DNA of 6,556 nucleotides from positions 1 through 6,556 of the forward strand of contig CAMMKE010000057.1 of the NCBI GenBank assembly GCA_946497375.1. Direction: 5' to 3'. The position numbers were made by a program, and so were the translations under genes. This document shows positions 1,424 to 5,758 of this stretch, piece after piece. Source of the stretch: an uncultured Mycoplasmatota bacterium. Lineage in GTDB: Bacteria; Bacillota_I; Bacilli_A; RF39; UBA660. The notes below the pieces were generated by a model. The model did not search any database. It was not told the origin of the DNA and worked only from the letters and a program-made list of their open reading frames with translations. Position 1 is the first letter of the stretch; each line of letters opens with the position of its first letter.

Positions 1424-1480
1424 TTGAATTTTTAAATATTTTATGATACTATTAATATGAAAGAGAAATTTGCATAAAAT
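1424..1480 (+). promoter_or_regulatory. Promoter(s) of the antisense RNA
   Basis: Two overlapping sigma-A-like promoters can be read. The upstream one is TTGAAT (1424-1429), a 17-nt spacer and TACTAT (1447-1452). The downstream one is TTAATA (1452-1457), a 17-nt spacer and TAAAAT (1475-1480). The downstream promoter would start RNA at about 1486-1488, exactly at the TAGGAACA motif that also begins the opposite transcript, so it is the more attractive choice. In AT-rich DNA such hexamers also occur by chance. Confidence 0.55.
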
Positions 1481-1512
1481 AAAAAAGTAGGAACACTTAA
1501 TATTGACGTGTT
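1481..1512 (-). terminator. Possible terminator of the peptide mRNA
   Basis: Read on the - strand, AACAC (1512-1508) pairs with GTGTT (1496-1492) around an 11-nt loop, then CCTAC and a run of six T (1486-1481). The 5-nt gap between stem and T-run makes it imperfect. Its position would end the - strand RNA just past the start of the convergent RNA and give an mRNA of about 235 nt. Confidence 0.35.
1488..1502 (+). repeat. Inverted repeat, left arm
   Basis: TAGGAACACTTAATA here recurs on the opposite strand at 1716-1702 with one C/T difference. GAGCCT also recurs (1517-1522 here; 1693-1688 on the - strand). Each copy lies at the predicted 5' end of one of the two convergent RNAs. Confidence 0.8.
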
Positions 1513-1538
1513 GAGTGAGCCTTTAGTATTATTGTTAG

Positions 1539-1578
1539 ACTACCTAATCAACATATGTTAGTTAGGTAGTTTTCCTTT
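1539..1578 (+). terminator. Strong hairpin terminator of the antisense RNA
   Basis: ACTACCTAA (1539-1547) pairs perfectly with TTAGGTAGT (1562-1570). The stem continues inward through a T-G wobble and one C/A mismatch into the palindrome AACATATGTT (1550-1559). The 3' side is followed by a T-rich tract (TTTT, CC, TTT; 1570-1578). On the - strand the same hairpin begins 6 nt after the stop of the small ORF but has no T-run, so it would be a stable 3' untranslated structure there and not a terminator. Confidence 0.75.
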
Positions 1579-1660
1579 ATATTAATACTATGAATAGTAA
1601 GAATAGTAAAAGGAAGATAATCATTACTAAAGAAAAAATTAGAAAATCTTTCTTGTTCAT
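1577..1660 (-). CDS. Small hydrophobic membrane peptide, putative type I toxin
   Basis: A 27-codon ORF that encodes a peptide starting MNKKDF followed by about 21 almost purely hydrophobic residues (Leu, Ile, Phe, Val, Met and one Ser), enough for one transmembrane helix, with the positive charges at the N-terminus. No charged residue follows the helix. The ATG (1660-1658) is preceded by GGAGGTGA (1673-1666) with an 8-nt spacer, one of the best ribosome sites in the window, so chance is unlikely despite the short length. The gene has its own promoter, a 5' hairpin covering the ribosome site and a convergent antisense RNA, the usual organisation of type I toxins. I do not recognise the peptide as a named family (Fst, TxpA, BsrG or Ldr). 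Toxicity is inference; a non-toxic small membrane protein is the alternative. Confidence 0.68.
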   Translation of the reverse strand: MNKKDFLIFSLVMIIFLLLFLLFIVLI

Positions 1661-1667
1661 TAATATC

Positions 1668-1691
1668 ACCTCCCTCTATTATGAAAGAGGC
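1668..1691 (-). promoter_or_regulatory. Hairpin occluding the ribosome site of the small peptide
   Basis: On the - strand, GCCUCUUUC (1691-1683) pairs with GAGGGAGGU (1676-1668) across a six-base loop. This gives nine consecutive pairs, three of them G-U. The 3' arm contains the GGAGGU core of the ribosome binding site. A shorter alternative, CCTCT (1690-1686) with AGAGG (1677-1673), would leave the core free, so the leader could switch. Such 5' helices limit translation of type I toxins, for example in the par/fst locus. Confidence 0.6.
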
Positions 1692-1701
1692 TCTACCCAA
1701 C

Positions 1702-1716
1702 TATTAAATGTTCCTA
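1702..1716 (-). repeat. Inverted repeat, right arm
   Basis: TAGGAACATTTAATA on the - strand matches the left arm at 14 of 15 bases. In a - strand RNA that runs through position 1488, this 5' segment could pair with its own 3' end over 15 consecutive pairs, one of them G-U. Confidence 0.8.
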
Positions 1717-1721
1717 AATAT

Positions 1722-1750
1722 ATAGTAATATATTATATATCTTATAACAA
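1722..1750 (-). promoter_or_regulatory. Promoter of the small peptide mRNA
   Basis: On the - strand, TTGTTA (1750-1745), a 17-nt spacer and TACTAT (1727-1722) form a sigma-A-like promoter. The -10 hexamer is identical to that of the upstream antisense promoter. The expected start at about 1716-1714 falls at the beginning of TAGGAACATTTAATA and gives a leader of about 55 nt. Confidence 0.6.
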
Positions 1751-1754
1751 TTAA

Positions 1755-1874
1755 AAATATAAAGTTTTTACTGGTAATTTTTGTCATTGTGTAAGAAATG
1801 GTTTTTAGTGGAAATTATATATGTTGATAATTAGATTTACCTATGATAGACTTAAAAAGAAGTGAGGAGTAATT
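1755..1874 (+). other. Leader region of the first ABC transporter unit
   Basis: This 120-base AT-rich stretch has no gene, repeat or riboswitch-like structure that I can support. GATAAT (1826-1831) could serve as a -10 element, but no good -35 lies 17 nt upstream, so the promoter of the ABC unit is not securely placed. The ribosome site GAGGAG (1864-1869) lies 5 nt before the ATG at 1875. Confidence 0.4.
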
Positions 1875-4189: not shown

Positions 4190-5758
4190 TTATAGTCTCT
4201 TGGTTTTTTGAAATCCTTTATCAATTAATGATAAAGATTCTTTTAAAGCAGATTGTTCAGTAATATCTATTTTTCCTTTTTCATTAACAGGAGCCATGAT
4301 AGAAAGGGGAGTAAACTTATCAACTTCAGTATTAAAATATTTAGTCTCTCCATCTTTAATTATTTGAATATAGTTACCTAAAGGATAAACTTTACAGTCA
4401 TAGGTATCTAATATAACTTGTCCTCCGCTTCTTTCAATTATTTTTCTAAAGTGAGATAAGCCACGACCATCAACAACATGTTTTGAAATACATAGATAAT
4501 CCTTTATTATAAAATAAACGAACTCTGTGTGTGAGGGGCTTATATTATATTTCTTATAATTAAAATCTTTTATAATGACATTTAACTCTTCATCAAAAAA
4601 GTCCATCGTTTCTGTATCAAAGTTTACTCCATAACCATAGGGAAGGGATAAATGAAAATACATATCATCATAAGGAACATCTTTTAATAGACCTGTTTCC
4701 ATATTAAGAAATTGTTTTCTTTTATTACTTTCAATATAAAACATACACTCTTTTTTACTATCAATACTATAAATCTTCTTACCATTTATTTTCTTTCTTA
4801 AATTAAATTCTTCATCATAAAAATAATAATCTTGTTTTTCATCTTCTATTTTTTCTCTACCTATATAAGTAGTAGGTATCCACCATGGATATGGCTCTAT
4901 TCTAACATGAGAGATAGTCTTTCCATTTTTTAAATTAACAAAAAGGTATTTATTAGTATCTTGATAGGAAATACAAAATTTTAATGTGTTGTTAGTAAGT
5001 TCATAATCTACAACGTTATTTAAATCATTTACTAAAATACTGTTAATTAACTCTAAATCTAAATCATATATTTCTATTAATTCATTTTTAACTAATACTA
5101 TTTTTTCATCATAATATATGGGCTTAGTAAGTAATTTTTCATTAGACTCTACTGTTTTTTCTATGATATTACCTTCGTCATTTAAGTTAATAATCCGTAT
5201 TTTATCATCATTATCAATAACTAAATAATTACCACTATAATTAATCCATCCTGTAATGTCTTTTAACAATACTTTACCACTAGCATTAAGAATAACTCTT
5301 TTTCTATATAAAAAATCTTTTTCAAAACTATTATCTTTTTCTCTAAAAACATATAAATTATTTTCAAGAGAATGTTCAAATTCATAATCAGTAGGGATAC
5401 TTAAATATTCTTTTGTCTCAATATTATAGATAGCATCATCTCCACCACCCATTTTCATAATTACTTTTAGACGTTTTTCATCTTCTTTATTAATATCGTA
5501 AGCTTTAAAGTCTTTAAAAACTATTGTCTTAGTTTCTATATTAATTAAATGTAAAGTATTATCTTTTATTACTACAGCATAGTCTATATTATTCATAGTA
5601 ATAACTTTATGAAAAGAACTATAGTAGGAAATATCATATATTTTTTTATCCTTTACCAATAGTTTTTGCTCGTTATCTAAATATACAAAAGTATAGTCAT
5701 CACTTCTATATATATCTTTAATGTTTATTCTTTTGTAATTACCTAATTCATATTTCAT
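4190..5758 (-). CDS. Protein of unknown function with propeller-like beta repeats
   Basis: A 522-residue soluble protein with no signal peptide or membrane segment. I do not recognise a family. It shows recurring short beta motifs of the form hydrophobic-x-N/D-x-E/K-T/G-K, for example INIETK (72-77), YNIETK (111-116), VNLKNGK (274-280), LNMETG (351-356) and the related YDLDLEL (231-237), FYDEEFNL (313-320) and FFDEELNV (387-394), spaced as in WG or beta-propeller repeats. The C-terminal 40 residues look helical and charged. The ATG at 5758 has AAGGAG at 5774-5769 with a 10-nt spacer. It is monocistronic: its own promoter lies upstream and a shared terminator downstream. It faces the GntR/ABC cassette across a 125-base divergent region. 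A scaffold or sensor role is possible but unsupported. Confidence 0.85.
   Translation of the reverse strand: MKYELGNYKRINIKDIYRSDDYTFVYLDNEQKLLVKDKKIYDISYYSSFHKVITMNNIDYAVVIKDNTLHLINIETKTIVFKDFKAYDINKEDEKRLKVIMKMGGGDDAIYNIETKEYLSIPTDYEFEHSLENNLYVFREKDNSFEKDFLYRKRVILNASGKVLLKDITGWINYSGNYLVIDNDDKIRIINLNDEGNIIEKTVESNEKLLTKPIYYDEKIVLVKNELIEIYDLDLELINSILVNDLNNVVDYELTNNTLKFCISYQDTNKYLFVNLKNGKTISHVRIEPYPWWIPTTYIGREKIEDEKQDYYFYDEEFNLRKKINGKKIYSIDSKKECMFYIESNKRKQFLNMETGLLKDVPYDDMYFHLSLPYGYGVNFDTETMDFFDEELNVIIKDFNYKKYNISPSHTEFVYFIIKDYLCISKHVVDGRGLSHFRKIIERSGGQVILDTYDCKVYPLGNYIQIIKDGETKYFNTEVDKFTPLSIMAPVNEKGKIDITEQSALKESLSLIDKGFQKTKRL

What the first reader, a model, noticed from the sequence alone, without database searches (positions are those of the whole stretch)
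1424..1750. Candidate new type I toxin-antitoxin locus in an apparently empty intergenic region
Within about 330 bases there are two convergent sigma-A-like promoters, a 27-residue one-helix hydrophobic peptide with a near-perfect ribosome site (1577-1660, - strand), and a short + strand RNA that ends at a strong hairpin and is complementary to the predicted mRNA 3' region over about 90 nt. The parts and their order match Gram-positive type I systems (txpA/RatA, bsrG/SR4, par/fst), but the peptide is not one I recognise. Standard gene callers would skip an ORF this short. Toxicity and antisense control are inferred.
Basis: partly seen in the sequence, partly recalled or inferred. Interest (0 to 1): 0.85.

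Follow-up and report, generated by a model that had tools for sequence, protein, structure and literature searches.

The report
Multicopy antisense-controlled mini-toxin family
A tiny membrane-peptide gene and the antisense RNA facing it form a conserved two-RNA unit, probably a toxin and its RNA antidote, and diverse versions of it sit at many places in the small genomes of a group of uncultured gut bacteria.

Summary
The 27-codon ORF (1577-1660, -), its ribosome site, two facing promoters and a terminated + RNA are conserved at the same site in 14 relatives (Candidatus Onthousia and kin) plus the window. Two relatives lack the unit; one carries an IS605-type OrfB gene at the ORF's end. A covariance model of the + RNA gives 11-27 matches per genome (E<=1, this site included) in 18 of 23 genomes of about 0.9-1.5 Mb. 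It hits 287 of 385 genomes of the order; in a class sample, 22 of 23 hit genomes had already been hit in the order sample. Of 73 RNA hits, 58 have a short hydrophobic ORF with ribosome site opposite, against 0.33% of shuffles. The RNA has two-sided changes in 30 of 32 pairs. The mRNA's two ends pair. The antisense RNA covers the 3' UTR, like bsrG/SR4; the end-to-end lock recalls aapA/IsoA. Ten peptides matched no Pfam or NCBIfam family. Expression and toxicity are inferred. [quoted passage not shown]

The parts
1424..1452 (+). Promoter of the antisense RNA: -35 TTGAAT (1424-1429), 17-nt spacer ending in TGA, -10 TACTAT (1447-1452)
   Evidence: TTGAAT or TTGAAA plus TACTAT in 15 of 15 copies at this site. 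Among 64 units of the family, the best -35 at spacing 16-18 matches TTGACA at 4 or more of 6 positions in 48 (no chance expectation was computed)
1459..1577 (+). Antisense RNA (predicted antitoxin): 5' hairpin region, stem-loop 1 (about 1489-1522), terminator hairpin (about 1537-1570) and T-rich run
   Evidence: Folding z -4.6 and -5.7 for 1480-1590; 30 of 32 pairs with changes on both sides over 82 distinct sequences. Both ends are inferred
1577..1660 (-). 27-codon ORF of a one-helix hydrophobic peptide (predicted toxin)
   Evidence: about half as many changes at second codon positions
1665..1673 (-). Ribosome site GGAGGTGAT
   Evidence: GGAGG at this place in 15 of 15 copies at this site
1481..1715 (-). 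Predicted toxin mRNA, about 235 nt, ending in a U-tract at 1486-1481
   Evidence: Folding z -7.0 for 1715-1479; both ends inferred from promoter and U-tract
1689..1715 (-). 5' arm of the end-to-end helix of the mRNA
   Evidence: (pair I6)
1489..1521 (-). 3' arm of the end-to-end helix; also complementary to antisense stem-loop 1
   Evidence: (pair I6)
1722..1750 (-). Promoter of the toxin mRNA: -35 TTGTTA (1750-1745), spacer 17, -10 TACTAT (1727-1722)
   Evidence: Both hexamers identical in 14 of 15 copies at this site; L017 has TTGTTG and TACCAT

Best explanation
This is one copy of a large family of type I toxin-antitoxin-like units found in one order of uncultured gut Bacilli. Shown by sequence and conservation: an ORF for a one-helix membrane peptide, mostly 22-33 residues, with a ribosome site; a predicted mRNA of about 235 nt whose two ends can pair; and a predicted convergent antisense RNA of about 119 nt, complementary to the mRNA's 3' UTR (in some groups also to the last codons) but not to the ribosome site. 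Inferred: both RNAs are made; the peptide harms the cell's own membrane; the mRNA is born folded and poorly translated; the antisense RNA pairs with the 3' UTR, probably starting at its stem-loops, and the duplex of about 100 bp is cut by RNase III, so that little peptide is made; loss of a short-lived antisense RNA frees the mRNA. The antisense sequences of the copies differ enough that most copies should be separate units.
For: Frame, SD and promoters kept at one site in 14 relatives and the window, with a 9-nt in-frame deletion in L013. 11-27 RNA-model matches (E<=1) in 18 of 23 genomes. Hydrophobic ORF with SD on the opposite strand in 58 of 73 units, 0.33% of shuffles (72 units x 100), 0 of 72 on the other strand; in 29 of 30 further loci. 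Antisense RNA: 93.1% of cells paired, 30 of 32 pairs changed on both sides, slid controls at most 42.5%. Own 5' UTR with own 3' UTR: mean duplex energy -36.8, with other units -26.0, shuffled -20.5 kcal/mol. Outer end-to-end helix 94.9% paired, at most 85.9% in 300 permutations of 3' arms. Non-cognate complementarity runs: median 8-9 nt. RNase III in 12 of 12 genomes searched.
Against: No expression data and no toxicity test. SD closure is hardly different from shuffles (mean unpaired 0.18 against 0.22; lower in 28 of 49), and blocking the 3' UTR changes it little (0.18 to 0.14), so a translation switch has weak support. In one search the number of two-sided pairs (10 of 10) does not discriminate: permuted arms give 7.1 on average and reach 10. 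In one search a unit's own partner was the single best in only 9 of 50, because close paralogues pair as well, and three units paired no better than average (G021_07, G021_21, G021_24). 15 of 73 hits failed the ORF test. The units are related, so they are not independent, and the alignment was fitted to its model.
Confidence: 0.8

Rival explanations
1. The peptide is a non-toxic small membrane protein, such as a regulator of a membrane enzyme or a stress protein, whose amount is tuned by the antisense RNA.
For: Toxicity was not tested. Single-helix small proteins can be regulators (recalled, from no call). In G017 many copies sit next to core genes such as dnaJ, smpB, nusB, priA and mscL.
Against: High copy number, strong divergence among copies, absence at some sites (L012, L016), an antisense RNA with no recognisable peptide ORF (L049) and varied neighbours look more like addiction units. 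None of this excludes a regulator.
Confidence: 0.13
2. The unit is a miniature mobile element; the inverted repeat is its ends and the ORF is incidental.
For: Many dispersed copies, sites without the unit, an inverted repeat at 1488-1502 and 1702-1716, and short AT-rich repeats near the borders (sequence).
Against: The inverted repeat lies inside both promoters, not at the borders of the missing segment. Its arms pair in 94.9% of cells, 45 of 468 of them G-U, which DNA ends would not need. The ORF with SD is kept. No transposase domain among 30 neighbouring proteins of 17 G017 loci, of which 25 had a Pfam match.
Confidence: 0.04
3. A true but very diverged member of a known type I family, TxpA/BsrG most likely.
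For: Same order of parts and the same 3'-end overlap as bsrG/SR4 and txpA/RatA; bsrG mRNA also has a long main helix touched by its antisense RNA (PMC6562991, passages).
Against: No credible Pfam or NCBIfam match for ten representative peptides (best E 0.022, to an unrelated family) and no related Rfam match in the window. Peptides this short match profiles poorly, so this is weak evidence.
Confidence: 0.03

Closest known systems
bsrG/SR4 and txpA/RatA (Bacillus subtilis)
   Same: [quoted passage not shown] small hydrophobic toxin; a main helix in bsrG mRNA (PMC6562991, passages)
   Different: Toxins there have 38 (BsrG) and 59 (TxpA) residues and lie on prophage regions; here mostly 22-33 residues and many copies, those scanned in G017 beside core genes. 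No profile match. Toxin sequences were not compared directly
aapA/IsoA (Helicobacter pylori)
   Same: Present in several copies; primary transcript held by a 5'-3' long-distance interaction; cis antisense RNA (PMC6733600, passages)
   Different: Epsilonproteobacteria. In aapA3 the end-to-end fold includes an anti-SD that traps the SD; here the 5' arm lies upstream of the SD and SD closure was hardly above shuffles. Sequences were not compared
par/fst (Enterococcus)
   Same: Convergent promoters, short membrane peptide, intramolecular pairing of the toxin mRNA (PMC7472228, passages)
   Different: In par, RNA contacts at direct repeats block ribosome binding and the RNAs share a bidirectional terminator; here the antisense RNA ends downstream of the ORF, and PXXXG is absent from 93 of 93 peptides
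Type I modules of Clostridioides difficile (CD2517.1-RCd8 and others)
   Same: Convergent overlapping units, 13 modules in one genome (PMC6563280, passages)
   Different: Toxins of 34-35 and 50-53 residues; sequence relation to the present peptides not tested

Membership tests
Type I toxin-antitoxin system (class) | Small hydrophobic peptide gene with ribosome site | tested here: met
Type I toxin-antitoxin system (class) | Antisense RNA encoded opposite, with long complementarity to the mRNA | tested here: met
   Met at sequence level: conserved promoter, terminator hairpin and covariation. The long complementarity follows from the shared DNA. Transcription was not shown
Type I toxin-antitoxin system (class) | Peptide is toxic when made | not testable with these tools
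   Needs an expression assay
Type I toxin-antitoxin system (class) | The RNA prevents toxin synthesis | not testable with these tools
   Needs a co-expression assay
TxpA/BsrG family | Toxin sequence related to TxpA or BsrG | tested here: inconclusive
   No Pfam or NCBIfam match for ten peptides, but I did not check that these libraries hold a profile of this family, and short peptides match poorly
TxpA/BsrG family | RNAs overlap at their 3' ends | tested here: met
   Layout, with inferred RNA ends
Fst/Ldr family | PXXXG motif in the membrane helix | tested here: not met
   0 of 93 peptides; motif from PMC7472228
Fst/Ldr family | RNA contact at direct repeats that blocks the translation start | tested here: not met
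   In the window the antisense RNA ends at about 1577, 88 nt from the SD, and no direct repeat lies at the SD
aapA/IsoA family | End-to-end helix of the toxin mRNA | tested here: met
   Prediction and comparison:
aapA/IsoA family | Sequence relationship of the peptide | not tested
   No aapA sequence was fetched or typed

The most novel reading that the evidence does not exclude
Most members of a bacterial order guard their small chromosomes with a distributed set of one to two dozen little cross-reacting, RNA-controlled killer units placed between core genes and diversified by cassette exchange between sites, acting together in phage defence or genome integrity rather than as selfish leftovers.
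Probability: 0.2. Interest if true: 0.85.

Novelty: new variant of a known kind. Interest (0 to 1): 0.66.

Why it matters
Up to 27 matches in a genome of about 1.4 Mb is more than the 14 potential type I systems given for B. subtilis (PMC6562991, passage), the 13 modules for C. difficile (PMC6563280, passage) and the ten putative loci in Microcystis (PMC12390103, passage). The comparison is of predictions with predictions, and I did not survey all published counts. The lineage is uncultured and these ORFs are too short for usual gene callers (general knowledge). The family offers many natural variants of one RNA-RNA switch, so pairing specificity, cross-talk and the role of the end-to-end helix can be studied by comparison. 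It also raises the question why small gut genomes keep so many such units.

Tried and rejected
Considered and rejected: chance ORF (0.33% of shuffles); chance hairpin (0 of 200 shuffles); miniature mobile element; membership of Fst/Ldr.

Led nowhere: Rfam on the window (two irrelevant matches at E up to 1). Phage and plasmid collections (no match at E<=0.01). Three patterns in IMG/VR (none; exact matching only, so diverged copies could be missed). Pfam and NCBIfam with ten peptides. Promoter scan (near chance). Paper searches gave mostly unrelated papers.

Not supported by my own tests: that SD closure is selected beyond composition (28 of 49 below their shuffles). That antisense binding closes the SD has weak support (lower in 37 of 49, higher in 12, mean 0.18 to 0.14, p 9e-4 on related units). 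The count of two-sided pairs in the end-to-end helix does not discriminate (permuted mean 7.1, maximum 10, observed 10); further pair types likewise (20 observed, permuted mean 18.4, maximum 22). Only the paired fraction does.

Dropped rows: of 73 units, 64 had an ORF with mean hydropathy of at least 0.9; 63 entered (G012a dropped) and 50 remained after removing near-duplicates; 49 (no start site found in G021_21); 47 (G021_07 and G032a also dropped by hand). In one search the row G017d has a mis-called start site and was kept. Starts chosen by script are not always right (G021_21, G017o, G032a and G012a look too long or mis-started).

Full report
WHERE IT LIES. The window carries a NUDIX gene, a PHP-domain gene (512-1405), the finding, an ABC ATPase (1875-2582), a hydrophobic 529-residue protein and a 522-residue protein without Pfam match, a GntR regulator and a second ABC ATPase. 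A scan of genome contigs with the PHP protein gave 23 loci, the closest 92% identical, among them Candidatus Onthousia excrementipullorum and O. faecipullorum. NCBI places Onthousia in Bacilli incertae sedis. No whole genome is held for the window.

THE UNIT AT THIS SITE. Between the PHP and ABC genes, 14 loci plus the window hold the complete unit: L002-L008, L011, L013, L014, L017, L018, L021, L022. In all 15 the ORF and a GGAGG site are intact. The peptides form three types: A (window, L006, L007, L008, L013, L014, L018), B (L002-L005, L021, L022) and C (L011, L017). L013 has a 9-nt in-frame deletion. The antisense RNA sequence differs between the A group and the B and C groups in step with the peptide. 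L012 and L016 keep the gene order but lack about 385-395 bp including the whole unit. L001 carries an IS605-type OrfB gene (Pfam OrfB_IS605, E 5.7e-24) at the end of a type C ORF, which separates it from the antisense RNA. Of the other six loci, L009 ends 164 nt after the gene and L010, L015, L019, L020 and L023 have other sequence there.

THE FAMILY. A covariance model of the + RNA (R1, 16 sequences) was run over the genomes of the 23 loci. At E<=1, which admits some chance matches and includes this site, 21 had matches, 18 of them 11-27; three had 1-4 and two none. At E<=0.01, G017 had 19 and G021 26. Of 60 genomes around G017 (itself included), 34 had matches at E<=0.01. A broader model (R2, 85 sequences) hit 287 of 385 genomes of the order at E<=0.001, with only 8 candidates scored per genome. 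In a class sample, 23 of 296 genomes were hit; 22 of them had already been hit in the order sample, one (G577) was new. The family thus looks confined to this order or nearly so, at this sensitivity; how many of the 296 lie outside the order is not told. E-values from these models are rough.

CODING EVIDENCE. The model describes the + RNA only. Opposite its 3' end I looked for an ORF of 17-40 codons with SD score of at least 5 of 6 and mean hydropathy of at least 1.4. It was present in 58 of 73 units, in 0.33% of dinucleotide shuffles (72 units x 100) and in 0 of 72 on the other strand. The 73 are 22 from G017, 28 from G021, the window and 22 from other genomes; they include weak model matches. 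Of 30 further loci from the order and class searches, 29 had such a peptide (none in L152). Groups by start of the peptide: KKD, KIKTF, RKxEKF...PTP, TKRE, and 22-residue KKD...R. Second codon positions change about half as often as first or third (447 against 843 and 888; 95 against 264 and 319). Ten representatives match no Pfam or NCBIfam family credibly.

RNA EVIDENCE. On 82 distinct antisense RNAs, 93.1% of cells pair and 30 of 32 pairs show changes on both sides; slid versions give at most 42.5%, shuffles 76.9% on average. The alignment was fitted to this structure, so it leans that way. The 5' hairpin (6 of 8 pairs with two-sided changes, some in few sequences) lies upstream of 1488 and, with the promoter at 1424-1452, argues for a start near 1459. 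The toxin mRNAs are far more stable than versions with shuffled flanks (mean z -7.4 over 49 units, 8 shuffles each). Their ends pair: own 5' UTR with own 3' UTR -36.8 on average, with other units -26.0, shuffled -20.5 kcal/mol over 50 units. The own partner was the single best in 9 of 50 and bettered or equalled by at most two in 32 of 50, because close paralogues also pair; three units showed no preference. Partition functions put 11.6-31.5 pairs between the two end regions in 49 of 49 units. In the outer helix 94.9% of cells pair, at most 85.9% in 300 permutations of 3' arms; 45 of 468 cells are G-U. All 10 pairs have two-sided changes, but permuted arms reach that number too.

SPECIFICITY. 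The cognate complementarity (longest run at least 88 nt in 20 units of G017 and 92 nt in 25 units of G021) follows from the shared DNA. Between copies the median longest run is 8-9 nt; 6 of 380 pairs in G017 and 16 of 600 in G021 reach 20 nt, with maxima of 33 and 37. Most copies should be separate units, but close paralogues may cross-react.

SURROUNDINGS. In G017, 30 of the 32 neighbouring proteins listed, from 17 loci, were scanned with Pfam; 25 matched. They include DnaJ, two aminoacyl-tRNA synthetases, SmpB, a Mur ligase, PriA, NusB, L31, MscL and Dus; none was a transposase or phage domain. Copies also occur close together (two in L033; two in L106 and four in L110). RNase III is present in 12 of 12 genomes searched.

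MECHANISM. Shown: layout, conservation, covariation, antisense complementarity in the 3' UTR and not at the ribosome site, and predicted end-to-end pairing. Inferred: transcription, toxicity, RNase III decay, antitoxin turnover. Blocking the 3' UTR lowers predicted SD accessibility slightly (0.18 to 0.14; lower in 37 of 49), but SD closure is hardly different from shuffles. I therefore favour decay of the duplex as the main effect over a translation switch. bsrG/SR4 is reported to do both, txpA/RatA only decay (PMC6562991, passages). aapA transcripts are held by a 5'-3' interaction until 3' processing (PMC6733600, passages).

NOVELTY. Three papers in the library name Onthousia (listing only, none with toxin-antitoxin in title or the shown abstract). 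No paper holds both RF39 and toxin-antitoxin; that RF39 is the name of this order in another taxonomy is recalled, from no call. PMC12390103 (passages) says that type I systems were known from Proteobacteria, Firmicutes and Tenericutes. The kind is therefore known. The peptide families and the scale appear new within what I searched. The library lacks many subscription papers.

Noticed in passing
L001:6074-7480: An IS605-type OrfB gene of 382 codons sits at the end of the peptide ORF and separates it from its antisense RNA, which scores as intact.
   Followed up: partly
L049:1501-1632: A well-scoring antisense RNA (64 bits) without a recognisable peptide ORF opposite: an apparent orphan antitoxin.
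   Followed up: partly
L033:178-308 and 589-717: Close pair of copies; the first joins a type B peptide to a 3' UTR like that of type A, as if cassettes recombine between ORF and antisense part.
   Followed up: partly
window 1424-1757 and L002-L022: Three peptide types occupy the same chromosomal site in different relatives, and peptides like A, B and C occur at different sites within G017, which suggests cassette exchange.
   Followed up: partly
L012 around 5870; L016 around 1986: Sites without the unit although the flanking genes are in place.
   Followed up: partly
window 4190-5758 (-): Protein of 522 residues without any Pfam match at E<=0.001, next to a GntR regulator and an ABC ATPase.
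   Followed up: no
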